From NCBI GenBank assembly GCA_021736335.1, contig JAIPGC010000001.1, positions 87,700-130,279 on the forward strand: DNA of 42,580 nt. The letters are read 5' to 3'. The notes beneath the pieces are model-generated. The model was given only the letters and a program-made list of their open reading frames with translations, was not told the origin of the DNA and did not search any database. Source of the DNA: Acholeplasmataceae bacterium. GTDB taxonomy: Bacteria; Bacillota_I; Bacilli_A; Acholeplasmatales; Acholeplasmataceae. The position numbers and the translations under genes were made by a program. Positions 1 through 32,407 of the stretch are shown one piece after another. The first letter of the stretch is position 1, and each line of letters starts with the position of its first letter.

Positions 1-335
1 TTTATGAGATTATTAGTAACGATGATTCATCCATAGAAGTACTTATTTATGATATCGTAACACAAGGTATCAACGGTCCTATACACATTGTTATTGCTGT
101 AGATCCCAATATCGATACTATCGTTGGTTATGTTGTTGTATCTCAATTTGAAACTGAAGGTCTTGGTGCACTTTATGCTTCACCAGTGATGATCAACTCC
201 ATCATCAACCAAACTGTAGATGCATTTAATATTGATTTGATTGCAGGTGCAACTGTCACATGGGATGCATTAGAATTAATGATTCAAGATGTGGTTGCTA
301 ATTATACGAACGAGGAGGTAAGTCTCAATGGGTAA
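1..335 (+). CDS. FMN-binding RnfG/NqrC-like protein, C-terminal part (G1)
   Basis: An open frame enters the window at its left edge and stops at TAA 333-335, giving about 110 C-terminal residues. They match the FMN-binding domain of RnfG/NqrC: a strand IVGYVVVSQ, then ETEGLG in place of the usual ETPGLG, then IAGATVTW. The last Thr of GATVT is where ApbE-type transferases attach FMN through a phosphoester bond. The protein would be anchored by an N-terminal helix and face outward. It overlaps the next gene by 8 bases, so it is part of the same operon. The Trp after the flavinylated Thr, where Ser is usual, and the altered ETPGLG loop mark it as divergent. A second, more canonical copy lies at 2493-3113. 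The N-terminus is outside the window. Confidence 0.8.
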   Translation, partial: YEIISNDDSSIEVLIYDIVTQGINGPIHIVIAVDPNIDTIVGYVVVSQFETEGLGALYASPVMINSIINQTVDAFNIDLIAGATVTWDALELMIQDVVANYTNEEVSLNG

Positions 336-954
336 TGATATTAAAAATGAATTGAAAAATATACTTAATCAAGGCATTTTCAAACATAATCCTGTGTTTG
401 TATTAGCACTTGCTTTAACTCCAGTTCTAGCAGTTTCTAACACAATAGGAAAAGCTTTAGGATTAGGAATGACCGTATTATTCATTATGGTACTTTCAAA
501 TCTTATTGTCTCTATATTTAAATCAAAATTATCAGATGAAGTCATGACAATTGTCACACTTGCTATCGTTGCATTTTTTGTCACGGTTGCTGAAATGATT
601 ATTCAGGTTCGAAATATCGCTTTATATGAAGATTTAGGTATTTATTTACCATTAACAGCAGTAAGTGGTCTCATTCTTCATAGAGCATTATCATTTTCGA
701 AGCAAAACAATGTCATAAAAAGTGTTGTTGATGGTTTTGCATATGGTGTTGGTTATTTAGTTGCTTTAATCATTATCACGATCGTTAGAGTTATAATCAG
801 TACAGGAAGCATGACTTTATTCAATATGCGTATGCAATTATTTGATTCAGTTTATTCATTTGATTTAGCAGATACTGCTTTTGGTGCTCTACTTATCGTA
901 GGTCTGATTTTAGGTATCTTCAAGACGTTTCAACAAAGAGGTGAAACAAAATGA
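328..954 (+). CDS. RnfE-type membrane subunit lacking both Fe-S cysteines (E1)
   Basis: A 208-residue polytopic membrane protein of the RnfE/NqrD family with about six hydrophobic helices. It aligns by eye with RnfE through HNPVFVLALALTPVLAV near residue 20 and PLTAVSGLILHRALSF near residue 108. In the family these two half-helix motifs read GLCPLLAV and TNCIVxGRAEAF, and each gives one Cys to the [2Fe-2S] cluster shared with the RnfA/NqrE partner. Here the positions are Thr31 and Gly114, so neither ligand is present. The reading frame is intact, has a ribosome site (GAGGAGG at 311-317), and overlaps both neighbours, so it is not a decayed gene. It probably pairs with the next product. Its role without a cluster is unknown. 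Confidence 0.85.
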   Translation: MGNDIKNELKNILNQGIFKHNPVFVLALALTPVLAVSNTIGKALGLGMTVLFIMVLSNLIVSIFKSKLSDEVMTIVTLAIVAFFVTVAEMIIQVRNIALYEDLGIYLPLTAVSGLILHRALSFSKQNNVIKSVVDGFAYGVGYLVALIIITIVRVIISTGSMTLFNMRMQLFDSVYSFDLADTAFGALLIVGLILGIFKTFQQRGETK

Positions 955-1553
955 TTGAATTTACTTCATTAGCTCAACTTATCGTAGCTACAATCTTTTT
1001 GAATAATGTGCTATTATTCTCCTTTTTAGGATTGGAGTCAGTAACAACAGTTGAAGAAAAACCTAAAAACGCACTTAAATTAAGCATTGCGTTATTATTT
1101 GTTTTACCACTTGTGAGTGTTATAAGTTTTTGGATTTACCATAATGTACTATTGAAAGTAAATGATACAGGAGATATACTTAGAGATGTAACATATCTTC
1201 AGACCTTTGTCTTTGTTATCACAATTACTGTGGTTGTCGTCATTTTTAATGTGTTGATTAAAAAGGTTTTTCCAAAATTACATTCATTCTTAGGTCAACA
1301 ATCTATTCAATTGGTATCAAATACTGTAGTTCTTGGTGTTTTGTTAATCAATATAAGTAGTGTTGATACACTTGCAAATAGTTTTTATTTCAGTGTATTT
1401 GCAGCAATAGGATACGGTTTGGTATTGATGATTTTAACATTTATAGAAAAGCAACTTCAAGATGCACCAATACCTAAAGGATTTAAAGGATTGCCATTAC
1501 AACTCATTATCCTTTCAATCATTGCATTAATCTTTTACGGATTGAGTGTTTAG
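951..1553 (+). CDS. RnfA-type membrane subunit lacking both Fe-S cysteines (A1)
   Basis: A 200-residue membrane protein of the RnfA/NqrE family, overlapping the upstream gene by 4 bases (ATGA). Residues from FLNNVLLFSFLGLESV and LVSNTVVLGVLLINI line up with RnfA motifs VNNFVLVKFLGLCPF and TTNCAVLGVALLNI. The two cluster-binding Cys positions are Glu29 and Thr125. Together with the cysteine-less E1, the whole pseudo-symmetric E/A pair would have no [2Fe-2S] centre in the membrane. The C-terminal PIPKGFKGLPLQLI segment is conserved with RnfA/NqrE, so the fold is probably kept. Assignment to the family is firm. Function is open: it might transport a flavin or another electron carrier, form a structural scaffold, or regulate the second complex. 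Confidence 0.85.
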   Translation: MIEFTSLAQLIVATIFLNNVLLFSFLGLESVTTVEEKPKNALKLSIALLFVLPLVSVISFWIYHNVLLKVNDTGDILRDVTYLQTFVFVITITVVVVIFNVLIKKVFPKLHSFLGQQSIQLVSNTVVLGVLLINISSVDTLANSFYFSVFAAIGYGLVLMILTFIEKQLQDAPIPKGFKGLPLQLIILSIIALIFYGLSV

Positions 1554-1563
1554 GAGGATTATG

Positions 1564-2496
1564 ATGAATACAATTGAAACAAATAGTCAAGAAATAAAAC
1601 AAGAAACTCCAAGAGTAAATCACAAAAATCTTATCATCATGTCTATTTTGCTAGTCGTGCTTTTACTTGTAGGTGCTTTTGTATATACATTCTATGTATT
1701 ACTTATGGGTGCTGTAGCAATCGTAACTGCTTTAGTCATTGAGTATGTTTTTGCTCGTGTTAGAAAACTAGATTATGGGAAAGACATATATGGCGCATTT
1801 GTAACTCCGCTTATATTTACATTGCTCATGCCACCTGAATTGCCATTATATATGGTTGTCATAGGTGTAGGGTTTGGTGTATTTATGGGTAAAAGCATAT
1901 TTGGAGGATTAGGACACAATATCTTTAATCCCGCACTTGTAGGTTATTTATTTTTACTTGTAACATTCCCTGTTCAAGTAGGTCAATCATTTATTGATCC
2001 AAGTACAGGCGAGCTTTTACAATCCATAAGTATTTCAGACTTAACATTTACAGGAACTATCGATCACTTATTGGGTCTCATGCTAGGCCAATATGCAAAC
2101 ACGATTGGTTCGACTGTCATGGCAGCTGTATGGATTATTGGAGCAATCTTGCTATTTCTAAAAATAGCAGATTGGAAAATCCCACTGACAATATTAGTTG
2201 CTTCCGCAGCATTTACTGTTATTTTAGGAAGATTTTATCCAGAACAGTTTCACGACGCATTTTTCTCATTGTTTTTAGGCCAACTCATGTTTGCAGCTTT
2301 CTTTGTAGCAACTGATCCTGTATCTGGACCTCAAACGACTAGAGGAAAAATTCTATATGGTATAGGCATTGCATTGATTACTGTAGTCATCCGTGGTTTA
2401 GCAGATGCTGCAGAAGGTGTCGTATACGCAATCATTATCATGAATGCAGTTTCACCTATGCTTGAAAAGAGCTTAAAGGAGGAAGATGAATCATGA
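1564..2496 (+). CDS. rnfD: RnfD-type membrane flavoprotein subunit
   Basis: About 310 residues with roughly ten membrane helices, homologous to RnfD/NqrB, the ion-channel subunit of these redox pumps. Its motifs FGGLGHNIFNPALVGYLFLL, FPVQ and ATDPVSGPQTTRGKILYG are closer to RnfD than to NqrB, which reads GGTGKNFLNPALTGRAF. It is also RnfD-like in lacking the long N-terminal extension of NqrB. The usual covalent FMN motif (S/T-GAT) is not clear: candidates are STGE at residues 147-150 and TGT ending at Thr165. An ATG lies at 1561, but the one at 1564 has better spacing from AGGAGG at 1552-1557. It is the only D/B subunit seen in the operon and overlaps nqrC by 4 bases. Confidence 0.85.
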   Translation: MNTIETNSQEIKQETPRVNHKNLIIMSILLVVLLLVGAFVYTFYVLLMGAVAIVTALVIEYVFARVRKLDYGKDIYGAFVTPLIFTLLMPPELPLYMVVIGVGFGVFMGKSIFGGLGHNIFNPALVGYLFLLVTFPVQVGQSFIDPSTGELLQSISISDLTFTGTIDHLLGLMLGQYANTIGSTVMAAVWIIGAILLFLKIADWKIPLTILVASAAFTVILGRFYPEQFHDAFFSLFLGQLMFAAFFVATDPVSGPQTTRGKILYGIGIALITVVIRGLADAAEGVVYAIIIMNAVSPMLEKSLKEEDES

Positions 2497-3113
2497 AACA
2501 GTACATATCTTTAATCATCTTTATCGGTGTATTAGGGTTCATTACATCACTTGCTTTTGTTGGTATGGATCTCTTATTTTCAGCTAGAATTGAAGCTAAT
2601 GAAAATGCAGCTCTGTATCAAGCGATTTTATTACATAATGATGAGACGTTTACAGAATCCACATATTTTAGTGTATTTGAATCAGTTATCGTTGTAGAAG
2701 ATTATGTCGTTAATGGTCAAGATGTCAAGCTTTACATCAATACTGATACAAATCATATTTCATTCATATTTGGTATATTTGATGCAAGTGGTTATATCGA
2801 TGATATTGTTGGTGTATTAACAATTGAAGATGATTTCAAAACGATTGTTGATATTACCATCTTACAACAAGGAGAAACTCCAGGTTTAGGTGGTAAAGTG
2901 GTTTTAAGAGAGTTCTTAGATCAGTTTGTTGGACTAGAATTAGATGATACTACTGAATTTCCAGTTGTCATTGGACCTATAGGATCTACTGAAAATGCTC
3001 CAAATGAAGTTGATCAGATTGCTGGAGCAACCAATACTTCTAACGCATTTCAAGGCGTTTTAGCAGAGAGTTATTACATTTATAAAGATCTTTGGGAAAG
3101 TAGAGGGCAATAA
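2493..3113 (+). CDS. nqrC: NqrC-type FMN-binding subunit
   Basis: 206 residues with one N-terminal membrane helix (about residues 5-28) and an extracytoplasmic FMN-binding domain. The segment QQGETPGLGGKV and the flavinylation motif IAGATNTSNA are typical of NqrC; the Thr of the NTS triplet should carry FMN. It sits between rnfD and nqrD, exactly where nqrC lies in the nqrABCDEF order, and starts inside the upstream stop (ATGA) with AAAGGAGG just before. No ApbE-type flavin transferase gene is in the window, so it must be elsewhere. The domain is shorter than in marine NqrC proteins (about 255 residues), mainly in the linker after the helix. Confidence 0.88.
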   Translation: MKQYISLIIFIGVLGFITSLAFVGMDLLFSARIEANENAALYQAILLHNDETFTESTYFSVFESVIVVEDYVVNGQDVKLYINTDTNHISFIFGIFDASGYIDDIVGVLTIEDDFKTIVDITILQQGETPGLGGKVVLREFLDQFVGLELDDTTEFPVVIGPIGSTENAPNEVDQIAGATNTSNAFQGVLAESYYIYKDLWESRGQ

Positions 3114-3115
3114 TT

Positions 3116-3742
3116 ATGAACTTAATTCGTATAAAATATACAAAGTGGTTTAATATTTTTAAGAATGGTATTAAAACGAATAATCCTATTTTTGTTGCTG
3201 CTCTAGGTTTATGTAGTGCACTTGCAGTTAGTAATACGGTTGAAAATGCGATTGCCATGGGTCTTGGTGTTACATTTGTAACAATGGTAAGTTCTATGTT
3301 TGTTTCTATGTTTAGAAACTATATACCATCAAAACTAAGAATTGTGACTTATATGGTCATCATTTCAACTTTTACAATATTCGTTCAAAAATTCCTTCAG
3401 GCATACTTTCCTGATATTTATAGCTCATTAGGAGCTTATGTTGGTTTGATTATTACAAACTGTATTGTTATGGGTAGAGCTGAAGCATTTGCTGTTAAAA
3501 ATCCATATCGTTACTCATTAATTGATGGATTTGCAAGTGGTATGGGATATACATTTGTGCTTGTCTTTGTAGCTTTGATTCGTGAACCATTGGCGTTTGG
3601 TACCATATTAGGATATCAAGTCATGCCTGCTGGATTTACGTTATGGGCATCTATGGCAATTGCTCCTGGTGGTTTCTTTATCTTAGGTGTTATGATCTGG
3701 ATATTAAGAACCTGGGCAAAGTCATATGAACAGGAGATATAA
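3116..3742 (+). CDS. nqrD: NqrD-type membrane subunit with both cluster cysteines
   Basis: 208 residues, polytopic membrane protein. The motifs NPIFVAALGLCSALAV and VGLIITNCIVMGRAEAFA are almost identical to NqrD, with Cys33 and Cys116 as the expected ligands of the [2Fe-2S] cluster in the centre of the membrane. The subunit pairs with NqrE to move electrons from NADH-derived flavin across the membrane. It follows nqrC by 2 bases and precedes nqrE by 3. Compared with the paralogue at 328-954 it is much closer to the family consensus, so this is the copy expected to be catalytically standard. Confidence 0.92.
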   Translation: MNLIRIKYTKWFNIFKNGIKTNNPIFVAALGLCSALAVSNTVENAIAMGLGVTFVTMVSSMFVSMFRNYIPSKLRIVTYMVIISTFTIFVQKFLQAYFPDIYSSLGAYVGLIITNCIVMGRAEAFAVKNPYRYSLIDGFASGMGYTFVLVFVALIREPLAFGTILGYQVMPAGFTLWASMAIAPGGFFILGVMIWILRTWAKSYEQEI

Positions 3743-3745
3743 ATC

Positions 3746-4315
3746 ATGTTAGAACTATTTATTAACTCAATATTAAGCAATAATATAGCATTAACACTTA
3801 TATTAGGTATGTGTCCCTTGATTGCAATTTCTACGAATGTTAGAAATGCAAGAGGTATGGGAATTGCAGTCATTTTGGTTGTGACCATTACTGCAGTGAT
3901 AAATTATCCGATTTTTCAGTTATTGAAGATGACTGGAACTGAAGATGTTAGCTTATTGGTGTTTATTATCACAATTGCTGCAACAGTTCAGATTTTAGAA
4001 TTATTGTTAGAAAAGTATATACCTTCACTTTATTCTGCATTTGGTATATATTTACCACTAATTACTGTTAACTGTGTTGTCTTAGCAGTAAGTCAATTTT
4101 TCGTCAATAGAGATTATACTTATGGACAAACAACCGTATTTGCTTTAGGATCATCAATTGGATGGTTACTTGCAATTGTACTGGTAGCATCTATTCGTGA
4201 AAAACTTGCTGTTTATGGAAACTTACCCAAAGGTTTAAAGGGAAAAGCCATCGTATTTATGATTTTAGGTATTTTGGCGCTTGCTTTTGCTGGATTTAGT
4301 GGTTTATCATTATAA
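3746..4315 (+). CDS. nqrE: NqrE-type membrane subunit with both cluster cysteines
   Basis: 189 residues, six hydrophobic helices. ILGMCPLIAIS (Cys23) and YLPLITVNCVVLA (Cys110) match NqrE, and the later GSSIGWLLAIVLVASIREKL and NLPKGLKGKAIVFMI segments are characteristic. Together with NqrD it should hold the intramembrane [2Fe-2S] cluster. It is slightly shorter than the usual 198-200 residues. The stop is followed at once by AAGGAGG for nqrF. The paralogue at 951-1553 has Glu and Thr at the two ligand positions. Confidence 0.92.
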   Translation: MLELFINSILSNNIALTLILGMCPLIAISTNVRNARGMGIAVILVVTITAVINYPIFQLLKMTGTEDVSLLVFIITIAATVQILELLLEKYIPSLYSAFGIYLPLITVNCVVLAVSQFFVNRDYTYGQTTVFALGSSIGWLLAIVLVASIREKLAVYGNLPKGLKGKAIVFMILGILALAFAGFSGLSL

Positions 4316-4328
4316 GGAGGCAGACCAT

Positions 4329-5408
4329 ATGTTTATATATTTACCTTTAATCATTGTTGGTGTATTATTACTAATCACAGGTATTCTTATCTTGCTTGAC
4401 TACGTATTTGGTGGAAGCAGTGAAAAGCAAATTACACTTAATAATGATACCAAATTGACTGTTACAGGTGATGACTTTGTATTATCAACACTTGCAGCAA
4501 ACAAAATATTTATCCCATCAGCTTGCGGTGGAAAAGCAACTTGTGGATTATGCAAATTTCGTTTAGTAGATGACGTTCCAAAAGTAAAGCCAACTGAAGA
4601 GCCATTTCTTTCTAAAGAAGAAATTGCAGATGGTGTTCGTTTATCATGTCAAGTCAAAGTTAAAGACAAAATGAAGATTATTTTGCCAGAAAGTTTACTT
4701 ACTGCAAAAGAATTTAAGACTGTCGTAACTGAAATAGAAGAATTGACTTATGATATAAAGCGTGTTCGCTTTGAATTAAAAGATCCAAAAACTGTAGATT
4801 TTAAACCTGGACAATTTATGCAAATCAAGGTTCCAGGAATTGATGTGATTCGTGCTTATTCATTAGCATCTGATCCTTCTCATACGAATTATGTGGAAAT
4901 GCTGATTCGTTTGGTTCCAAAAGGTCAGGCAACAACATATGTTCATAAAGCTTTAAGAGTTGGTGATAAAGCAATATTAACTGGTCCTTATGGTGATTTC
5001 TTTTTGCAAGAGGATTCAGATAAGCCGATTGTATGTATTGCTGGTGGATCCGGCAAGGCACCTATTCGCTCGATATTATTTAGACTTAAAGAGATGGGCA
5101 TGTCAAGAAAAGTTCAGTACTTCTTTGGTGCTAAATCTTTGAAAGATTTATATTATACAGAAGAGTTTGAAGCTTTACAAAAAGAGTATCCTAATTTTGA
5201 GTATATTCCTGCATTGTCTTTGCCAGATGAAAATGATAACTGGACAGGAGAAAAAGGACTTATTACTGAAGTGTTAGATCGCAAAACTGGTGATTTAACT
5301 GATTATGAAGCTTATTTGTGTGGCTCTCCAGGTATGATTAAGGCATGTATCAATGTCTTAAACAAACATAAAATTAAGACTGAAAACGTATTTTTCGATG
5401 AATTCTAA
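4329..5408 (+). CDS. nqrF: NqrF-type NADH:acceptor reductase subunit
   Basis: 359 residues. An N-terminal membrane helix (residues 5-27) is followed by a plant-type ferredoxin domain with Cys66, Cys72, Cys75 and Cys107 for a [2Fe-2S] cluster, an FAD domain with RAYSLAS, and an NADH-binding half with AGGSGKAPIRSILF and CGSPGMI, ending in FFDEF. This is the electron-input subunit of Na+-NQR, oxidising NADH at the cytoplasmic side. The start at 4329 is chosen because AAGGAGG lies at 4314-4320; an upstream in-frame ATG at 4281 lies inside nqrE. NqrA, the quinone-site subunit, is not seen; it could be left of the window or absent. This is the last gene of the redox operon. Confidence 0.92.
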   Translation: MFIYLPLIIVGVLLLITGILILLDYVFGGSSEKQITLNNDTKLTVTGDDFVLSTLAANKIFIPSACGGKATCGLCKFRLVDDVPKVKPTEEPFLSKEEIADGVRLSCQVKVKDKMKIILPESLLTAKEFKTVVTEIEELTYDIKRVRFELKDPKTVDFKPGQFMQIKVPGIDVIRAYSLASDPSHTNYVEMLIRLVPKGQATTYVHKALRVGDKAILTGPYGDFFLQEDSDKPIVCIAGGSGKAPIRSILFRLKEMGMSRKVQYFFGAKSLKDLYYTEEFEALQKEYPNFEYIPALSLPDENDNWTGEKGLITEVLDRKTGDLTDYEAYLCGSPGMIKACINVLNKHKIKTENVFFDEF

Positions 5409-5548: not shown

Positions 5549-5577
5549 AAAAAATAGGAACATTGTTTCTATTTTTT
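5549..5577 (+). terminator. Intrinsic terminator after tRNA-Gln
   Basis: AAAAATAGGAAC pairs with GTTTCTATTTTT around a small ATT loop (one G-U pair), and the stem runs into a T-tract. It ends the tRNA-Gln transcript. Confidence 0.7.
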
Positions 5578-5631
5578 TATTTTATAGTAATTTTGAGTGA
5601 ATCTTCCTACTATAAAGCAGGAGGTAACAAT

Positions 5632-7182
5632 ATGAAAAAAACGATGATCTTTTTAATGCTTTTTTGTTTAGGGTTATTTTTGATTCATTTTGAATCAAGA
5701 GCAGAAGGAACTGATACTTTTCCAATCGGAAAGAATTATTTGAATTTGAGTAATTTGATCATGATTCCGGGTGATTCTGGGTGTGCATATACGAAAAACC
5801 CAATTTTAGTGAAACCTAATCAGCAATATACAATTGTGCTTGATTTTGGCTTTCTTGGACAACATAGTAATTGGCTTGGTGACATCATGATTAGCTTTGA
5901 AGAATATCCTTCACATGACATTTATGATGCTTTAATTTTAGCGGATTTCGTCAATGAAAGAGCCTATGTGGAATTTATGCCTAACGATGAGTATATACAT
6001 ATCACGAGTTTACCGATGCTTCCAGAAAATTATGATGCTATCCTTTATGAAGGCTTGTATTCGGACTTTTCTGGGTTTGAACCATACATCGATCAAAATG
6101 AAGAGATGGTATATTATGGTGTGCTTCCAATTGATTTTGATGAAAACATGACTGCTGAAGAAATAAAGGCCTATATCCATGCAAGTAATCCAGATGGAAC
6201 TCCCATAAGTTTTGAAACCGAATCTGATGAATATTCATCAGGAACAAAGACACCAGGTAATTATCAAATGGTCTTTATTACTGAATACAATTTGATTTCA
6301 AAAAGATATTATTTAGAAGTCAGGGTATTTGATCAAGCTGCTCCACTCATTATTGATCCCGGTATCATTTCTATCCCCTTAAGTGAGAAGGCAAGCTTAA
6401 GCGAGATCAAGCAGATGATTAGTGTCACTGATAATGTCGATTTGATGAGTTCTAGTGACCTAATAATCACTTTTGATACCTATTCATCAGCAATCACTGT
6501 AGGGACATATGAGATTACATTTCAAGCAATTGATTCAAGTTCGAATGAATCTTCACGTACGGTTACAATCAATTTGATTGATTTGAATGGTCCACAAATT
6601 ACTGGCCCTAATGATATTTATCTTTATACATCAGATAACCCATTATCTATTGAACAGATTAAGGATTACTATACATTTATTGATGATGTGGATGGGACAA
6701 ATGTAGGTGTTATATTTACAGTTGATGAGTATCAACAAACTCAAATTGAAGGTATTTATGACATAACGATCAAAGCGGTTGATCAACAGCTGAATTTTAA
6801 GGTTAAAAATATCAAGATACATGTCATTGAAAACCGCGGTCCAGTGTTCTCAACAGATGAGATTGTACTTGATATTGATACCGCTGATGCAATGACAGAA
6901 CAAGAAATCATCGATTGGTTTGTGAACCACACCTTATCGATGGGCTTTGATGTCTCACATGTGCGCGTCCTATATAATGAATATGAGAAACATCAAGATG
7001 TGGATGGTAGTTATTATGTTTACTTAAACTATGAGGTAAACGGGGAAACAACTTTATCACGTATCAGACTTGATGTTGAAGAGGCTAGTTCAGATATCAA
7101 TTTCTTACCATTCATAGTCATCGGTGTACCTTCAATTGGTGGTTTAATAACCGTTTTTGTCTTAAAGAAAAAAAACAAGTAA
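5632..7182 (+). CDS. Membrane-anchored surface protein with Ig-like domains
   Basis: 516 residues, not recognised as a named family. An N-terminal signal peptide (about residues 1-24, ending near SRA) is followed by a unique domain to about residue 210, then three or four Ig-like beta-sandwich repeats of about 75 residues. The repeats share DNVDLM/DDVDGT and TVGTYEITFQAIDSSSN-like signatures of the bacterial Ig (DUF5011/HYR-like) type. The C-terminus has one membrane helix and a KKKNK tail, with no LPXTG motif, so it is anchored as a type I membrane protein with domains outside. The start at 5632 follows AGGAGG; an earlier in-frame ATG at 5563 lies within the tRNA terminator. It is flanked by tRNA genes and stands alone. 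Adhesion or ligand binding is likely but unproven. Confidence 0.8.
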   Translation: MKKTMIFLMLFCLGLFLIHFESRAEGTDTFPIGKNYLNLSNLIMIPGDSGCAYTKNPILVKPNQQYTIVLDFGFLGQHSNWLGDIMISFEEYPSHDIYDALILADFVNERAYVEFMPNDEYIHITSLPMLPENYDAILYEGLYSDFSGFEPYIDQNEEMVYYGVLPIDFDENMTAEEIKAYIHASNPDGTPISFETESDEYSSGTKTPGNYQMVFITEYNLISKRYYLEVRVFDQAAPLIIDPGIISIPLSEKASLSEIKQMISVTDNVDLMSSSDLIITFDTYSSAITVGTYEITFQAIDSSSNESSRTVTINLIDLNGPQITGPNDIYLYTSDNPLSIEQIKDYYTFIDDVDGTNVGVIFTVDEYQQTQIEGIYDITIKAVDQQLNFKVKNIKIHVIENRGPVFSTDEIVLDIDTADAMTEQEIIDWFVNHTLSMGFDVSHVRVLYNEYEKHQDVDGSYYVYLNYEVNGETTLSRIRLDVEEASSDINFLPFIVIGVPSIGGLITVFVLKKKNK

Positions 7183-18580: not shown

Positions 18581-20484
18581 TGAGTCAAAAAGAATATAGT
18601 AAAGACTTTTTTACATTAGTCCAAGAAAATGAACGTCTTTTAGATAAACCGCTTAAGACTAAACAATTAAGCTATTTTCAGGATGCAATGTTAAGATTCA
18701 CCAAAAATAAATATAATGTTATTGCGACAATTATCTTATCATTTATGATTTTATTATCAATATTTGTCCCAATTCTAACACCAAAAGACTTATACACTCA
18801 AACAAACTCTTCACTCGTTACACTTCCTCCTAGAGTTCCATTATTGGAAAAATTAGGTATTATGGATGGAACAAAGGAATTTGAAGGCCAACCTGTTGAT
18901 TTATCGACAATTGATCCCGTTACAGGACTTGGTTATCCAACAATTGGTTTCCAACCAGAATACATCTTAATGGATACATTGAAAAATGAAGAAATCATTG
19001 GTGCTGATAGAAGTGAACTATTTGTTGGTGGAACTAATGATTTATATGTGAACTTTGATCGTTTAGCATATGCTATTATTACGCCAACGATTCATAATTT
19101 TGTTACTGGTCAAACTATTGAAGTTGATATTGATGAACTCGTAGGTAATGGTGTTGTTAAAGTTTATTTAGCAGCTACTTTATCTGATGAAGGAATTGCT
19201 TCATGGGATGACCTGACTTTACTTGGTACTATTTCTACTACAGGTGTTAGCACCATAGATCCATTCACATCGATTACTTCAGGTACACCAGGTTATGTAA
19301 TTTATAAGTATGAATTACCAAGTCCTAGCGTATCAGGTAATGATTTTGTTTCATTCAACTCAGTTGGTATAAAAAACGCAAGTGATGCAGTTGTCGTTAC
19401 TTATACAGGATATAACTTGTCAACATTTAATCTATACTCACTTAGTGATGTTTTAGAAAATGGACGTTATGTTAGAGATAATGCAATTATGGTCGTAGCT
19501 TCTTTTAGATATAACGTTTATGAAGCATTATTTGGTGATAAACCTAGAACTATTGGCGAAGTACAATATCAAAAGATTTTAGATGATAATCCTGGCATGG
19601 AAGATTCAATTGAAGTAGATCCACTGGATCCAAATGCATGGACTTTTGGCGAAGGATTCCCTTTAACAGAAGTGACTGGTATTACTCAGATTACGATTGC
19701 CGGAAAAATCTATAGAAACTTTAATGTCATGATGAACGGAGCATATGACCTAGGATTTGAAACTGCTCCATACTTCTTATTTGGAACCAATGTATTTGGA
19801 CAAGATCTATTTACTTTGATTTGGTTAGGTCTAAGAACATCATTATTATTGGGCTTCATGGCTGCACTTGTTAATATCATTCTTGGTGTCATTTGGGGTG
19901 CTACAAGTGCTTATTATGGTGGTCAAGTTGATATATTAATGGAAAGATTCACAGATATCTGGGGATCATTCCCTCAAATTACAATGATCGGTATTATTAC
20001 CGTATTAATTGGACCAGGTTTTACCGCTTTATTTATCTTCATGATTTATGATGGATGGATAGGCGCTGCAAAGGTTACTAGATCACAGTTCTATCGATAT
20101 AAAGGCCGTGAATATGTACTTGCAGCAAGAACTCTTGGTGCATCGGATCGAAGAATCATATTTAAACATATCTTACCAAATGCTTTAGGAACCATTATCA
20201 CTAGAGTTATCTTAAGTATTCCTACAGTTATTTTCCTTGAAGTTAACCTATCTTATTTAGGGTTTGGTATTGGTAATGGTCAAGCTTTAAAAATTGGACC
20301 AATCTCATTAACAGGTACATCAATTGGTGTTATTTTGAATGATGGTCAACAACAAATTTTCGCTGGTAATCTTTGGATGGTTGTCTTCCCAACAATTATC
20401 ACATCAATATTGATGATTACTTTTAATATGTTCGGGAATGCATTGCGCGATGCACTCAATCCACAGTTAAGAGGTAGTGAATAA
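18580..20484 (+). CDS. oppC: Permease OppC with a large extracytoplasmic insertion
   Basis: 634 residues, about twice the usual 300. A cytoplasmic N-terminus and first helix (about 48-70, ending PILTP) are normal. Between residues about 75 and 400 lies a beta-rich domain, outside the membrane by topology, with VTYTGYNLSTFNLYSLSDVL and ITIAGKIYRNFNVMM-like strands. From GTNVFGQDLFTLIWLGLRTS the canonical OppC core resumes: SAYYGGQVDILMERFTDIW, the coupling motif EYVLAARTLGASDRRIIFKH, and LSYLGFGIG. The insertion occupies the point where OppC usually has a short loop. Its contact is probably with OppA. The insert was not recognised as a named domain. One-base overlaps join it to oppB and oppD. 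Confidence 0.9.
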   Translation: MSQKEYSKDFFTLVQENERLLDKPLKTKQLSYFQDAMLRFTKNKYNVIATIILSFMILLSIFVPILTPKDLYTQTNSSLVTLPPRVPLLEKLGIMDGTKEFEGQPVDLSTIDPVTGLGYPTIGFQPEYILMDTLKNEEIIGADRSELFVGGTNDLYVNFDRLAYAIITPTIHNFVTGQTIEVDIDELVGNGVVKVYLAATLSDEGIASWDDLTLLGTISTTGVSTIDPFTSITSGTPGYVIYKYELPSPSVSGNDFVSFNSVGIKNASDAVVVTYTGYNLSTFNLYSLSDVLENGRYVRDNAIMVVASFRYNVYEALFGDKPRTIGEVQYQKILDDNPGMEDSIEVDPLDPNAWTFGEGFPLTEVTGITQITIAGKIYRNFNVMMNGAYDLGFETAPYFLFGTNVFGQDLFTLIWLGLRTSLLLGFMAALVNIILGVIWGATSAYYGGQVDILMERFTDIWGSFPQITMIGIITVLIGPGFTALFIFMIYDGWIGAAKVTRSQFYRYKGREYVLAARTLGASDRRIIFKHILPNALGTIITRVILSIPTVIFLEVNLSYLGFGIGNGQALKIGPISLTGTSIGVILNDGQQQIFAGNLWMVVFPTIITSILMITFNMFGNALRDALNPQLRGSE

Positions 20485-22052
20485 TGAGTAGAGAAAAAAT
20501 ATTAGAAGTAAACAATTTATGTGTGTCATTTAAAACACCTAATGGTCTCGTTAGAGCGGTTAGAGACGTTTCATTTGACCTTTATAAGGGAGAAACACTG
20601 GCAATTGTTGGTGAATCTGGTTCAGGTAAATCTGTAACCAATCGAGCTATCATGGGTATTTTGGCGCGCAACGGTATCATTGATGGTGGAGAAATATTAT
20701 ATAGCAATCAAGATTTAACGAAGCTTTCTGAAGAAAACTTCCATTTGATTAGAGGTAACAAAATTGGTATGATTTTCCAAGATCCGCTATCAAGTTTAAA
20801 TCCTATTATGAGAATCGGTAAACAAATTACAGAAGCAATGCTTGTCAACGGTGACCGTGTTAAAAATAGACAACATGACTTATACCATAAGGAATATCAT
20901 GATTATCTTAATATGATAGCACGCATCAAACTTGCTGATAATGAGTTAAAAAATAAAATATTTGAGCTTAACACAAATAAAGAAATTGAAAAACCTGAAA
21001 AGAAAGAAAAGATTAAGGCATATAAAGCTAAGCATACAAAGGCTGTTCATGAACTCAAGGCATTATTGCCAGATCTAAAAGCAAAATATTTAGATTCTAA
21101 GCATAAGGCTGTTGTTCAGACAAAACAAGAAACTGCTGTTTTATTAGCTGAAAAGAAAGAAGTATTTGCTAAACTTAAGTTAGAATTAGGCAACAAGAGA
21201 AATGAACTGAAAGGTCTTCAAAGATCAGAAGATCGATATACAAAAATTGTAGATGAGATCAATCAGATCAAAGAAAAAATTGCTAACAATTCAGAAGAAT
21301 ACACAAGAAAATTCAAGGTTACTAGAAGAGAAGCCTATGAAAAAGCAATCTCAATTATGACAGAAGTAGGTATTCCAGAACCTGAAAAACGTTTTACTCA
21401 ATATCCATTCCAATTTTCTGGTGGTATGAGACAACGTATCGTTATTGCGATTGCACTTACTGCAAATCCAGAGTTATTGATTTGTGATGAACCAACAACT
21501 GCTCTAGACGTTACAATTCAAGGACAAATTTTAAATTTGATTCAAGATATTAAAAAAGAACGTGATTTATCAGTTATTTTCATTACGCATGATTTAGGTG
21601 TTGTTGCGAATATGGCTGATCGTGTTGCAGTTATGTATGCTGGTAAGATTGTCGAATATGGAACACTTAATGAAATATTCTACGAACCTAAGCATCCATA
21701 TACGTGGGCATTGCTATCAAGCGTCCCAGATTTGGATACAAAAGATAAGCTTTTATCTATTCCAGGTACACCTCCAGACATGCTCTTTCCACCAAAGGGA
21801 GATGCATTTGCCGATCGAAACCAATTTGCATTGAAGATTGACTTCTATGAAGAACCACCGTTCTTTAAAGTCAGTGATACACATTATGCAGCAACATGGT
21901 TGTTACATCCGGATGCACCAAAAATACCAATGCCTAAGATTATTCAAGATAGAGTTGATCGTTTTAAAGCTGAACATATTGAAAATGAAGCTCAAGATAA
22001 ACTCGATTTGAAGAAAAACAGCAGCAAGAAGAATGAAGGTGAGAATAAATGA
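20484..22052 (+). CDS. oppD: ATPase OppD with a coiled-coil insertion after the Q-loop
   Basis: 522 residues against about 335-355 usual. Walker A GESGSGKS (43-50), Q-loop IFQDP (Gln99), signature FSGGMRQR (about 311-318), Walker B LLICDEPTTALD and switch His in FITHDLG are all present, so it should hydrolyse ATP. Between the Q-loop and the signature, at about residues 125-290, lies a Lys/Glu-rich helical stretch with heptad character, for example near EKKEKIKAYKAKHTKA and LGNKRNELKGLQRS. The C-terminal oligopeptide domain near IPGTPPDMLFPPKGDAFADR follows; the family Cys residues that bind an Fe-S cluster in some Opp proteins are not visible. It ends in a Lys-rich tail and overlaps oppF by 4 bases. 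Confidence 0.92.
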   Translation: MSREKILEVNNLCVSFKTPNGLVRAVRDVSFDLYKGETLAIVGESGSGKSVTNRAIMGILARNGIIDGGEILYSNQDLTKLSEENFHLIRGNKIGMIFQDPLSSLNPIMRIGKQITEAMLVNGDRVKNRQHDLYHKEYHDYLNMIARIKLADNELKNKIFELNTNKEIEKPEKKEKIKAYKAKHTKAVHELKALLPDLKAKYLDSKHKAVVQTKQETAVLLAEKKEVFAKLKLELGNKRNELKGLQRSEDRYTKIVDEINQIKEKIANNSEEYTRKFKVTRREAYEKAISIMTEVGIPEPEKRFTQYPFQFSGGMRQRIVIAIALTANPELLICDEPTTALDVTIQGQILNLIQDIKKERDLSVIFITHDLGVVANMADRVAVMYAGKIVEYGTLNEIFYEPKHPYTWALLSSVPDLDTKDKLLSIPGTPPDMLFPPKGDAFADRNQFALKIDFYEEPPFFKVSDTHYAATWLLHPDAPKIPMPKIIQDRVDRFKAEHIENEAQDKLDLKKNSSKKNEGENK

Positions 22053-23461
22053 ACGACAACAGAGAAGAAATGAATGAAAGCAGAGAAGAAATATTAAGAG
22101 TATCTGGTCTTAAACAGTATTTCAAACTGGGTTCAGGCAAAAGCAAAATGGTGAATAAAGCTGTTGATGACATTTCTTTTTCAATCTATAAAGGTGAAGT
22201 ATTCTCACTGGTTGGTGAATCAGGCTGTGGAAAGACTACAACCGGTAGATCCATTATTAAGTTATATCAATCAACAGGTGGAGAAGTTTATTTCCATGGA
22301 ACTAGAATCTTTAGTGATGTAGCTAAGGAAAAAGAAATATACAAAGAAAAGAAAACTAAGCTTGATGAGCAAAAGAAACTTGAGATGGATAATCTTCAAG
22401 AAAAATTGACTGCAGGTAGAATTACAAAAGAAGATTTTACTGAAAAAGTCAGTGCCATCAATGAAAAGTACAATCAAGAACTTTCTGAAGCTCGTGATAT
22501 TCTTAAGAGTGCAAAAAGAGATAGAAGATTTGAATCAATTGTTGATGAAAAAGCCCTAAAAGCTAGAAATCAGATACAATCATTTCCTGAATATCAGGAA
22601 ATTGTCCAAAAGTATAAAGAACTCAATAGTAATCTTAAAGCTGAAATAGCAAAAGGTAAGATGGTCGAGAATTCAGCAGAATTGAAGAAATTACAAAAAG
22701 AGATTAAATTGAATGAAATTAGACAAAAACAGGATATTGCTAAATTAAAGTACAGCATGATTAATAAAAATCGTTTATTGATGCGCAAGATGCAGATGAT
22801 CTTCCAGGATCCAATTGCATCGCTTAATCCTAGAATGACTGTCAAGGAAATTATTGCAGAAGGACTTAGAATTAATGGCGTTAAAAATGAAAAAGAAATT
22901 GATGATCGTGTTAATGAGGCTTTAAAAACTGTTGGACTGGTTCCAGAACATGCGAGCCGTTATCCACATGAATTCAGTGGTGGACAACGCCAACGTATTG
23001 GTATTGCTCGCGCACTTGTTGTTGAACCTACATTCATTATTGCTGATGAACCAATCTCTGCACTAGATGTTTCCATTAGAGCACAGATTATCAATTTGCT
23101 TAATGATTTAAGAGAAACAAAAGGCATTACGATTATGTTTATTGCCCATGATTTGTCCGTAGTTAAATATTTCTCTGATCGCTTGGCCGTCATGTATTAT
23201 GGTCATCTAGTCGAAATTGGAGATAAGAATCGAATTTTTGATAACCCATTACATCCATACACATTATCACTTATGGCTTCGATACCACTACCGGATCCTG
23301 AGTACGAAAAGCGCAGAGGAAGAACGGTTAGATATAATCCTGCGAAACAACATGATTATTCTAAGGAAGCACCAAGCCTACGTGAAGTTGAACCAGATCA
23401 TTTTGTATTATGCAACACTGAAGAGTTCAATAGATATCAAGAGCAGCTCAAAAATAAATGA
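22049..23461 (+). CDS. oppF: ATPase OppF with a coiled-coil insertion before the Q-loop
   Basis: 470 residues against about 310-330 usual. Walker A GESGCGKTT (about 56-64), Q-loop MIFQDPIASLNPRM (Gln near 253), signature FSGGQRQRIGIARAL (about 309), Walker B FIIADEPISALD and MFIAHDLS are intact. The insertion, about residues 90-240, sits between Walker A and the Q-loop, whereas in OppD it follows the Q-loop. It is charged and helical (KEKEIYKEKKTKLDEQKKLE, LKAEIAKGKMVENSAELKK). The two inserts could pair as an antiparallel coiled coil below the transporter. ATGA overlaps join it to both neighbours. Confidence 0.92.
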   Translation: MNDNREEMNESREEILRVSGLKQYFKLGSGKSKMVNKAVDDISFSIYKGEVFSLVGESGCGKTTTGRSIIKLYQSTGGEVYFHGTRIFSDVAKEKEIYKEKKTKLDEQKKLEMDNLQEKLTAGRITKEDFTEKVSAINEKYNQELSEARDILKSAKRDRRFESIVDEKALKARNQIQSFPEYQEIVQKYKELNSNLKAEIAKGKMVENSAELKKLQKEIKLNEIRQKQDIAKLKYSMINKNRLLMRKMQMIFQDPIASLNPRMTVKEIIAEGLRINGVKNEKEIDDRVNEALKTVGLVPEHASRYPHEFSGGQRQRIGIARALVVEPTFIIADEPISALDVSIRAQIINLLNDLRETKGITIMFIAHDLSVVKYFSDRLAVMYYGHLVEIGDKNRIFDNPLHPYTLSLMASIPLPDPEYEKRRGRTVRYNPAKQHDYSKEAPSLREVEPDHFVLCNTEEFNRYQEQLKNK

Positions 23462-30857: not shown

Positions 30858-31655
30858 ATGAGAAAAATATTGATTGTTGTTATGATTTTCATCATTAGTA
30901 TGGGTTTATCAGCTTGTAGGACAGAAAAAACTTATGATGATCTTTATTTGGAGTACTTAAATCATTTAGAAGAAAATGAAGTTAACTACCAGTCAACCAT
31001 TGACTATTTTAATCATGTCTCTACAGAGGTCATTAAAAGTGTCGTCCATATTGAAAAATTAGTTTTTGGCATAGGATCATCTACAGGTTCAGGTGTCATA
31101 ATTAAAGCTGAGGCAAGTCATTACTATGTTTTAACAAACAACCATGTGGTTTATGTTGCAGAGAACATTGTACGTGTAGACTATGTAGTTACAGACTATT
31201 TAGGCAACGAATATACTGCTTTGTTGATATCAAGCAGTGAAGACTATGATTTGGCAATACTAAGAATTCCAAGAAAGACATTTGAATTGCCAGTGATTAC
31301 ATTTGCTCCGCATAACCCAGTTAAAGGTAGAAATTTAGCTATACTAGGATATCCAAGTTTTCAACTCAATGCGATCACTATTGGTGATGTCATTGATTAT
31401 GCACCAATTGAAGTATCTAGCACATCATATGATATTATCAACGTTTTATTCGATGTTTTGATATGTGATGCTCCAGTTAAATCGGGTAGTAGTGGTAGTG
31501 TTGTTATCAATCAGCAATTTCAGTTAGTTGGTATTGTATATGCAGGTAATTTTGCTGATACAAATGATGTATCAGAATATACTTTCTGCATACCTGTTGA
31601 AAAAGTTCTAGAATTCTTCCAATTGAAGCAATTCAGTTTGGAGGTTGAATCATGA
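30858..31655 (+). CDS. HtrA-like serine protease lipoprotein without PDZ domain
   Basis: 265 residues. Lipobox LSAC (Cys20) anchors it outside the membrane. A trypsin-like fold of the HtrA/DegP type follows: His96 in LTNNHVV, Asp131 in DYDLAIL and Ser212 in GSSGS form the catalytic triad, and GSGVII and VGIVYAG are family strands. No PDZ domain follows; the chain ends 50 residues after the catalytic Ser. It probably cuts misfolded or surface proteins. It shares ATGA with its downstream paralogue. A TAAAAT at 30832-30837 may be the -10, though no clear -35 is seen. Confidence 0.88.
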   Translation: MRKILIVVMIFIISMGLSACRTEKTYDDLYLEYLNHLEENEVNYQSTIDYFNHVSTEVIKSVVHIEKLVFGIGSSTGSGVIIKAEASHYYVLTNNHVVYVAENIVRVDYVVTDYLGNEYTALLISSSEDYDLAILRIPRKTFELPVITFAPHNPVKGRNLAILGYPSFQLNAITIGDVIDYAPIEVSSTSYDIINVLFDVLICDAPVKSGSSGSVVINQQFQLVGIVYAGNFADTNDVSEYTFCIPVEKVLEFFQLKQFSLEVES

Positions 31656-32407
31656 AAAAATTAATTTTACTATTGCTAGTTCTTTCAATCTTATTATCAG
31701 GTTGTATTAAAGTTATAGAAGAAGAAAATTCAGATGAGTATAAAGCATTATCATCACAATACGAAGCATTTATATCTCATGACATTCTTGATGATCAACA
31801 ATTTGAGGCTTTTATCAATACGACAACTTTCGATACAATACAATCAAATATCATGATTAAAGTTCAAATTTATGATGAATTAAATAATTTAGTGGAAACC
31901 AGATATGGCTCTGGTGTTGTCGTGGAAAAAGGTGTTTATTATTATGTGTTGACAACATCTGATTTGACTTATACGAGTGAGTATCATAATGTTTCATATC
32001 TTGCTACAGATTATCAAGGCCGTATTGCAAAAGCCTATATCGATCATATTTCTTTAGATTACGGTTTGACAATCTTAAGATATCAACGCGTTTTAGCAAC
32101 AAGATTACCAGTTATTGATTTTGCTCCAGCAACACCTTTGCAAGGAGAACCACTTTTGCAGTTTGGTTATAAAGGCGAAATCATGAATTCTATGTCTATG
32201 GGGTTGATGATTGAAGAAGATATTATTGATGGTCCAACAAACGATTATTTCTATACCTCTATAGCAACAGATGAATTTGCAAATGGTAGTGCAATTATCA
32301 ATATGAGCAATCAATTGGTAGGTATTCAAGTGAGTGTAGTCGATGGTATGAGTTATGCAATTTCAATTTCAGAAATCGTGCAATTCCTACATGTTTATGA
32401 GGATTAA
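31652..32407 (+). CDS. HtrA-like pseudoprotease lipoprotein
   Basis: 251 residues, paralogue of the preceding protein with the same plan: lipobox LSGC (Cys18), linker, trypsin-like domain. Aligned with its neighbour, the triad is gone: LTTSDL stands where LTNNHVV has His, DYGLTIL where DYDLAIL has Asp, and FANGSAIIN where GSSGSVVIN has Ser. GSGVVVEKGVYYYVLT and NQLVGIQ keep the fold. The reading frame is open and overlapped (ATGA), so the loss is likely selected, giving a binding or regulatory partner of the active protease. A terminator follows. Confidence 0.85.
   Translation: MKKLILLLLVLSILLSGCIKVIEEENSDEYKALSSQYEAFISHDILDDQQFEAFINTTTFDTIQSNIMIKVQIYDELNNLVETRYGSGVVVEKGVYYYVLTTSDLTYTSEYHNVSYLATDYQGRIAKAYIDHISLDYGLTILRYQRVLATRLPVIDFAPATPLQGEPLLQFGYKGEIMNSMSMGLMIEEDIIDGPTNDYFYTSIATDEFANGSAIINMSNQLVGIQVSVVDGMSYAISISEIVQFLHVYED

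What the first reader, a model, noticed from the sequence alone, without database searches (positions are those of the whole stretch)
328..1553. Rnf-type E/A pair lacking all four cysteines of the intramembrane [2Fe-2S] cluster
In every standard RnfE/NqrD and RnfA/NqrE pair two Cys per subunit hold a [2Fe-2S] cluster at the centre of the membrane. In this intact, overlapping pair the positions are Thr31 and Gly114 (E1) and Glu29 and Thr125 (A1), while the second pair in the same operon keeps Cys33, Cys116, Cys23 and Cys110. Selective loss of all four ligands with preserved fold and translation suggests a new function, for example a scaffold or a route for flavin, quinone or another substrate, joined to the flavinylated G1 protein.
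Basis: partly seen in the sequence, partly recalled or inferred. Interest (0 to 1): 0.85.

Follow-up and report, generated by a model that had tools for sequence, protein, structure and literature searches.

The report
Cluster-free Rnf pair beside quinol-less oxidase
A wall-less bacterium carries an intact pair of membrane proteins that has lost the metal-cluster sites its characterised relatives use, and the pair travels with an oxygen-reducing enzyme that has lost most of its quinone-handling loop, hinting at a respiratory chain wired by flavins instead of quinones.

Summary
Confirmed: E1 (328-954) and A1 (951-1553) are intact RnfE- and RnfA-type proteins without the four cysteines of the intramembrane [2Fe-2S] cluster; E2/A2 in the same operon keep theirs. 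In all five genomes found with this pair the sites are Thr/Ala, Gly/Ala, Glu/Asp and Thr. Both genes are under purifying selection.

The window cuts the operon. "G1" is the last of four FMN-binding repeats of a 947-residue protein with an RnfD-like front (D1). Order: cydA-cydB-D1(FMN)n-E1-A1-D2-G2-E2-A2-nqrF. A1 and cytochrome bd occur in the same 5 of 160 genomes of the order. That CydA keeps its haem ligands but has 28 residues where E. coli has 140 (quinol loop). No UbiA-type quinone enzyme was found in 88 genomes of the family.

Cysteine-free E/A pairs recur in 13 genomes of the family, all with rnfB-less Rnf operons, and in 2 genomes of another family.

Best reading: D1-E1-A1 is a cluster-free membrane base carrying an FMN relay from an NqrA-less Nqr module to a quinol-independent bd oxidase. 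Anatomy and co-occurrence are shown; cluster absence and the electron path are inferred. No structure could be predicted.

The parts
1..335 (+). C-terminal end (last FMN_bind repeat) of D1, a 947-residue RnfD/NqrB-like membrane domain fused to four FMN_bind repeats; the rest lies upstream of the window (G000:C21, locus L012:7192-10035)
   Evidence: PF04205 43.2 bits on the window part; whole protein PF04205 in 4 stretches and PF03116 66.8 bits; GAT motif in all four repeats
328..954 (+). E1, RnfE/NqrD-type subunit without the two Cys ligands (Thr31, Gly114)
951..1553 (+). A1, RnfA/NqrE-type subunit without the two Cys ligands (Glu29, Thr125)
1546..2496 (+). D2, RnfD/NqrB-type membrane subunit; no GA[ST] flavinylation motif in its membrane domain
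   Evidence: PF03116 243.9 bits; alignment and motif count
2493..3113 (+). G2, NqrC/RnfG-type FMN_bind subunit with one GAT motif
   Evidence: PF04205 54.1 bits; motif
3116..3742 (+). E2, NqrD/RnfE-type subunit with both Cys ligands (Cys33, Cys116)
   Evidence: PF02508 199.7 bits
3746..4315 (+). A2, NqrE/RnfA-type subunit with both Cys ligands (Cys23, Cys110)
   Evidence: PF02508 169.8 bits
4329..5408 (+). nqrF-type NADH-oxidising electron-input subunit (membrane helix, 2Fe-2S, FAD and NAD domains); in-frame ATG at 4329, the ORF caller's TTG at 4281
   Evidence: PF00111, PF00970, PF00175; TIGR01941 nqrF 270.9 bits, under its cut-off of 295; start

Best explanation
[quoted passage not shown] With the RnfD-like domain of D1 they make the membrane base of a second Rnf/Nqr-type core that has no electron-input subunit of its own and moves no electron across the membrane. 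Its job is to anchor and position the covalent FMN domains of D1 (1 to 4 copies) on the outer face. Proposed path: NADH to NqrF, to the E2/A2 cluster, across the membrane to the FMN of G2, to the FMN repeats of D1, to haem b558 of a cytochrome bd whose outer-face quinol loop is largely missing, to O2. The flavin relay would replace the quinone pool. SHOWN by sequence: missing ligands, intact fold-level homology, selection, operon order, co-occurrence with cydAB, shortened quinol loop with haem ligands kept, no UbiA family hit, no NqrA. INFERRED: that no cluster is bound, that E1/A1 pair with D1, the direction of electron flow and the FMN-to-haem step.
For: Ligands absent in 5 of 5 genomes with dN/dS 0.06-0.13. 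Operon order with gaps of -8 to +3 bases between neighbouring genes from cydA to A2 in the window genome, same order in four other genomes. A1 in 5 of 160 genomes of the order (301-341 bits, next best 118.7), CydA in the same 5 of 160. CydA: equivalents of E. coli H19, H186, M393, E445, E99, E107 kept, E257 in a gap in all five, R391 replaced in all five; 28 residues between the K252 and M393 equivalents in 4 of 4 measured, E. coli 140, fifth with the same gap; 389 residues against 448-522 in the 7 solved CydA chains. UbiA in 0 of 88 family genomes, 14 of 14 controls found. NQRA_N over cut-off in 0 of 160. FMN motifs in D1: 4, 3, 1, 1, 1; no GA[ST] motif in the D1 membrane domain, 10 of 10 rows. 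Without E1/A1, 14 loci from 13 genomes show the D2-G2-E2-A2(-F) block with no cydAB and no D1. Recurrence: 13 genomes with rnfB-less Rnf operons have Cys-free E/A and no PF04060 match (13 of 13). A review states that the [2Fe-2S] passes electrons from RnfB/NqrF to RnfG/NqrC (PMC12174285, passages); a cluster without an input subunit would have no use.
Against: E1/A1 share their operon with a nqrF, so the 'no input subunit' rule rests on reading that gene as the partner of E2/A2. On the gene tree the rnfB association gives only 1 independent pair and no significance, and one origin of all Cys-free pairs is not rejected (AU p 0.34). The five genomes lie in two genera, so cydA co-occurrence may be one or two events. 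All five are MAGs, 83-95% complete, and might use quinones from outside; K252 is kept. G000 also has a complete-looking Rnf elsewhere. Loss of Cys does not prove that no cofactor is bound. No structure or complex model was obtained.
Confidence: 0.45

Rival explanations
1. E1/A1/D1 serve extracellular electron transfer: the FMN repeats pass electrons from the Nqr module to acceptors outside the cell, such as iron, and cytochrome bd is merely a neighbour using scavenged quinol.
For: Multi-flavinylated proteins are proposed to do this, and partial NQR/RNF-like systems are proposed to be unidirectional (PMC8238504, passages; PMC11334425, section 9). The repeat number varies 1-4, as in a wire.
Against: Exact co-occurrence with cydA in 5 of 160 genomes, one operon, the shortened quinol loop and no UbiA hit.
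Confidence: 0.25
2. The pair has become an ion carrier: the conserved carboxylate at the first A-site (Glu/Asp) replaces the redox cluster as the switch of the alternating-access E/A dimer, coupling Na+ or H+ movement to the flavin chain or letting it leak.
For: Acid at the first A-site in 15 of the 20 Cys-free genomes examined (5 with A1, 10 of g2/g3). Cys to Glu needs three base changes. A Na+ path through RnfA-E driven by the cluster is one proposal for A. woodii Rnf (PMC12174285, passages).
Against: The acid is absent in the other 5 (three g6, two f10); one alignment (G009) is shifted at this site. No transport evidence. g2/g3 and A1 may share ancestry (AU p 0.08 for that grouping).
Confidence: 0.12
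3. Another cofactor, or a cluster with other ligands, sits in E1/A1 and still carries electrons across the membrane.
For: Thr and Glu are possible ligands in principle; the pair is under selection.
Against: Sites vary among Thr/Ala and Gly/Ala in E1, which cannot ligate a metal in all five; no electron-input subunit beyond the one nqrF.
Confidence: 0.08
4. Relic: a duplicated Rnf core in slow decay with no role of its own.
For: Faster protein evolution than E2/A2: 81% and 89% identity to G038 against 94% and 94%.
Against: dN/dS about 0.1, open frames in five genomes, 41-42% residue identity still held across two genera within overlapping genes.
Confidence: 0.1

Closest known systems
RNF complex, RnfA/RnfE (for example C. 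tetanomorphum 7zc6, 9eri; A. vinelandii 8ahx; organisms of the entries partly recalled)
   Same: E1 and A1 match these subunits over nearly their whole length; gene order E-A as in Gram-positive rnf operons.
   Different: All four cluster cysteines missing; no RnfB or RnfC in the operon; D1 fused to FMN repeats and without a membrane flavinylation motif.
Na+-NQR (NqrBCDEF)
   Same: D2-G2-E2-A2-F has the NqrB-C-D-E-F order, cysteines and an NqrF-type input subunit.
   Different: No NqrA, no GA[ST] motif in D2's membrane domain; scores under the NCBI equivalog cut-offs for NqrB-F.
NQR/RNF-like and multi-flavinylated systems of Meheust et al. 2021 (PMC8238504) and the 2024 follow-up (PMC11334425)
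   Same: Partial Nqr/Rnf parts with FMN-binding domains, an RnfD-like domain without the flavinylated Thr, several FMN domains in one protein.
   Different: Theirs is a two-subunit system with an RnfD-NAD(P)H-reductase fusion and no E/A pair (section 9 read); here a whole D-E-A core remains and is linked to cydAB.
Cytochrome bd oxidases, including families without a quinol site (Murali et al. 2021, recalled; not held; cited in a passage of PMC8951039)
   Same: CydA/CydB with haem ligands.
   Different: Quinol loop cut to 28 residues between the K252 and M393 equivalents; fused by operon to a flavin system. Which Murali family it would join was not tested.
   Same: Cys-free E/A, flavinylated G subunits, apbE.
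   Different: They keep rnfC and rnfD with a flavinylation motif in most and have no cydA.

Membership tests
RnfE/NqrD and RnfA/NqrE protein family (PF02508) | Profile match over the curated cut-off | tested here: met
   136.2 and 89.6 bits, cut-off 23.8
RnfE/NqrD and RnfA/NqrE protein family (PF02508) | Four Cys ligands of the intramembrane [2Fe-2S] cluster | tested here: not met
   Thr, Gly, Glu, Thr in the window; none in five genomes
RnfE/NqrD and RnfA/NqrE protein family (PF02508) | Six transmembrane helices in inverted halves | not tested
RNF complex (RnfABCDGE) | RnfB electron-input subunit beside the pair | tested here: not met
   no rnfB in the operon; the genome's only PF04060 match is in the separate Rnf on C51
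RNF complex (RnfABCDGE) | RnfC NADH subunit in the same operon | tested here: not met
   no rnfC hit in the D1-E1-A1 operon (the rnfC query was added, run on other loci)
Na+-NQR (for the D2-G2-E2-A2-F block) | NqrA subunit | tested here: not met
   NQRA_N over cut-off in 0 of 160 genomes
Na+-NQR (for the D2-G2-E2-A2-F block) | NqrF with 2Fe-2S, FAD and NAD domains; E/D pair with Cys | tested here: met
   TIGR01941 270.9 bits is under its equivalog cut-off
NQR/RNF-like system of Meheust et al. | PF03116 domain fused to a PF00175 NAD-binding domain | tested here: not met
   D1 is PF03116 fused to PF04205; PF00175 lies in the separate nqrF
Multi-flavinylated protein | More than one FMN_bind domain in one extracytosolic protein | tested here: met
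   4 domains in D1 of the window genome, but 1 in three of the five genomes; location outside the membrane is inferred
Cytochrome bd quinol oxidase | Haem ligands of CydA | tested here: met
   H19, H186, M393, E445 equivalents
Cytochrome bd quinol oxidase | Q-loop for quinol binding (E257 and loop) | tested here: not met
   E257 in a gap in five, loop 28 against 140 residues; K252 kept

The most novel reading that the evidence does not exclude
A quinone-free aerobic respiratory chain: an NADH dehydrogenase of Nqr type hands electrons through a string of covalent FMN domains, held by a cluster-free Rnf-type core (D1-E1-A1), directly to a cytochrome bd whose quinol domain has been trimmed away. 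Covalent flavins do the work of the quinone pool.
Probability: 0.35. Interest if true: 0.92.

Novelty: new variant of a known kind. Interest (0 to 1): 0.74.

Why it matters
The intramembrane [2Fe-2S] cluster is held to be a fixed part of every Rnf and Nqr core; a review calls the cofactors of these subunits strictly conserved in both complexes (PMC12174285, passages). [quoted passage not shown] The tie between cluster loss and loss of RnfB is a simple rule for reading Rnf operons, which are often annotated as complete ion pumps. If the link to the loop-less cytochrome bd holds, it would be an oxidase fed by protein-bound flavin without quinones.

Tried and rejected
Sequencing or assembly error and pseudogene: rejected (five genomes, open frames, dN/dS). 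E1/A1 as a copy of E2/A2: rejected; the tree keeps the Nqr-type pairs as one clade (100/100) apart from E1A1. One ancient Cys-free lineage against several losses: undecided. The best tree needs 2 changes of Cys state and puts E1A1 with the Cys-bearing rows, but holding all 19 Cys-free rows together is not rejected (p 0.34), nor E1A1 with g2/g3 (p 0.08), nor g2/g3/g6 (p 0.22); branches are long. The independent-pairs test of Cys loss against rnfB loss gave 1 pair, so no statistical support beyond the counts; in that script I filled the trait by hand, left E1A1 out, and the class rows were not counted. Wider E1/A1 relatives: the class sample of 395 genomes and one scan of genome contigs (one locus, itself the contig of G038) gave no further carrier; a phylum search was not run. 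Quinone or flavin import by the pair: no evidence sought beyond. Haem synthesis and cydCD were not searched.

Full report
What was checked. E1 (328-954) and A1 (951-1553) are open, overlapping frames and match PF02508 at 136.2 and 89.6 bits. NCBIfam places them nearest RnfE-type (PRK12405, 141.5 bits; TIGR01948, 133.9) and RnfA-type (TIGR01943, 110.8) models, all under the curated cut-offs. In alignments with solved RnfE and RnfA chains (three shown for each) and with the genome's other pairs, the cluster positions are Thr31, Gly114, Glu29 and Thr125. E2/A2 (3116-4315) and the Rnf pair on contig C51 have Cys at all four.

The real locus. The window is G000:C21:87700-130279 of a 1.75 Mb, 99-contig assembly, 85% complete. 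The operon starts before the window: cydA, cydB, then a 947-residue protein, D1, made of an RnfD/NqrB-like membrane domain (PF03116, 66.8 bits) and four FMN_bind repeats. The 'G1' of the finding is the last repeat. The order is cydA-cydB-D1-E1-A1-D2-G2-E2-A2-nqrF; gaps from cydA to A2 are between -8 and +3 bases. The FMN repeats upstream are 88, 78 and 76% identical in DNA to the window copy.

Relatives. With E1 as query, 88 genomes of the family gave five strong matches (100, 81, 74, 41 and 38% identity); a second partial match in G085 is the other contig end of its split locus; the remaining matches listed were 36% or less. With an A1 profile, 160 genomes of the order gave five matches at 301-341 bits, the next being 118.7. 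The five are G000, G033 and G038 (genus g1) and G083 and G085 (g14). All five have cydA-cydB-D1-E1-A1-D2-G2-E2-A2-F, in G085 split over two contig ends. Sites in E1: Thr in four and Ala in one; Gly in four and Ala in one. Sites in A1: Glu in four and Asp in one; Thr in five. D1 carries 4, 3, 1, 1 and 1 GAT-type FMN motifs. The D2-G2-E2-A2 block alone, without cydAB, D1, E1, A1 nearby, was seen in 14 other loci from 13 genomes, with nqrF in 13 of them; one contig ends before it. Fetched E2/A2-type proteins had both Cys in 21 of 21 E and 21 of 21 A; fetched Rnf-type ones were also Cys-bearing in 36 E and 35 A, besides the Cys-free ones told below (rows include several from one genome).

Selection. 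dN/dS for E1 was 0.130 (NG86) and 0.059 (YN00) between G000 and G038, and 0.106 (NG86) between G038 and G033; for A1 0.069-0.080 and, by YN00 in one pair, 0.111. E2 and A2 gave 0.02-0.06. For the other combinations dS was saturated or the method failed.

The oxidase. PF01654 (CydA) was found in 5 of 160 genomes of the order, the same five; 10 of 14 control genomes rang. In all five, equivalents of the E. coli haem ligands His19, His186, Met393 and Glu445 and of Glu99 and Glu107 are present (His19 of G085). The quinol loop is not: between the equivalents of Lys252 and Met393 there are 28 residues in the four sequences measured against 140 in E. coli, and the fifth shows the same gap. Glu257 falls in the gap in all five, Arg391 is His or Leu, Lys252 is kept. 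Solved CydA chains matched are 448 to 522 residues long; this one is 389. [quoted passage not shown] That bd families without a quinol site exist is recalled from Murali et al. 2021, which is not held.

Quinones. PF01040 (UbiA family, which includes MenA and UbiA; recalled) was found in 0 of 88 genomes of the family, 0 of 51 near-complete ones, with 14 of 14 controls positive. NQRA_N was over its cut-off in 0 of 160 genomes; five weak matches under the cut-off lie in other genomes. A cultured family member, Peloplasma, had no detectable respiratory quinones and no cytochrome bd (PMC11122141, passages). Against this, authors on an Izemoplasma isolate, a related wall-less lineage, write that its complex I and cytochrome bd interact with the quinone pool (PMC8397711, passages).

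A wider rule. Cys-free E/A pairs also occur in 13 genomes of genera g2 (8), g3 (2) and g6 (3) of the same family, in operons rnfC-D-G-(G')-E-A-apbE with no rnfB (G010's and G017's contigs end within the operon). None of the 13 genomes has a PF04060 match, whereas all 20 genomes of g1 do. Nine of ten Cys-bearing Rnf loci examined have rnfB right after rnfA; in the tenth, G038, the contig ends there (L013). In the class sample of 395 genomes, 218 matched the A profile and 213 had PF04060. Comparing the two lists by eye, 16 had the first and not the second: G001-G007, G009, G015, G016, G164 and G175, all Cys-free; G234, with no intact frame; and G312, G447 and G487, which have the Nqr-type pair with Cys and nqrF next to it. 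G164 and G175 belong to another family, and their E/A are so changed that Pfam finds no PF02508 in them; their homology rests on weak A scores (26 and 14 bits) and on place in the operon. The reverse, Cys-free pairs in genomes with PF04060, was checked only for the loci fetched from that sample, where full-length E and A rows other than those of G015, G164 and G175 were Cys-bearing (42 E, 43 A; three further rows are cut at contig ends). G000, G033 and G038 have PF04060 in their separate Rnf and Cys-free E1/A1 as well.

History. A tree of 52 concatenated E+A pairs, ligand columns left out, gives E1A1 as one clade (100/100), the Nqr-type pairs as another (100/100), and puts E1A1 with the Cys-bearing rows (97/98). 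Two losses are the fewest on that tree, but a single Cys-free clade is not rejected (p 0.34). The first A-site is acidic in 15 of the 20 Cys-free genomes.

Mechanism. In Rnf and Nqr the cluster takes electrons from RnfB or NqrF and hands them to RnfG or NqrC on the outer side (PMC12174285, passages). A pair with no input subunit needs no cluster, and the rnfB-less Rnf operons show that pairs are kept without one. In the window operon the single nqrF can serve E2/A2. D1 has no flavinylation motif in its membrane domain and carries its flavins outside (inferred). The simplest reading is that D1-E1-A1 is a structural base for an FMN relay, and its exact company suggests what the relay feeds: a cytochrome bd whose quinol loop, which in known enzymes lies at the outer face by haem b558 (established knowledge), is mostly gone. 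The chain NADH to NqrF to E2/A2 to G2 to D1 to CydA to O2 is inference; the parts are shown.

What is in print. Partial NQR/RNF-like and multi-flavinylated systems are described (PMC8238504, passages; PMC11334425, passages and section 9). The evolutionary model of Nqr from Rnf through rnfB loss, with RnfC keeping a structural role as NqrA after losing its cofactor sites, is described (PMC4014512, passages) and is a close precedent for 'subunit kept, cofactor lost'. One paper notes that acholeplasmas have 'the Rnf complex' (PMC4221730, one passage). My full-text searches listed no paper that I recognised as describing Cys-free RnfA/RnfE pairs or a flavin-fed cytochrome bd; the library holds open-licence papers only and most listed papers were seen as listings.

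Noticed in passing
L188:6546-12050, L189:3348-8876 (G164, G175; another Bacilli family): rnfC-D(FMN)-G-E-A-apbE operon whose E and A are so divergent that Pfam finds no PF02508; no rnfB and no PF04060 match listed for these genomes.
   Followed up: partly
G000:C21:86400-88034 (end at window 335): FMN_bind repeats of D1 88, 78 and 76% identical in DNA to the window copy: a young tandem array; 1 to 4 copies among five genomes.
   Followed up: partly
20484-22052 and 22049-23461: OppD- and OppF-like ABC ATPases with long, charged, coiled-coil-looking insertions inside the nucleotide-binding domain (seen by eye in the translations).
   Followed up: no
30858-31655 and 31652-32407: Two tandem secreted trypsin-like proteins; the second seems to have a degenerate active-site serine motif (by eye).
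   Followed up: no
5563-7182: Uncharacterised secreted protein directly after the operon, also found there in G038 and G033, followed by a bcp-like peroxiredoxin and pyruvate:ferredoxin oxidoreductase.
   Followed up: no
G083:C50:109-330: A second partial cydA match in G083 at a contig start.
   Followed up: no
L013:117-4740 (G000:C51): A separate Rnf in the same genome with Cys-bearing E/A, a very short RnfB (105 residues, one FeS domain) and ApbE.
   Followed up: partly
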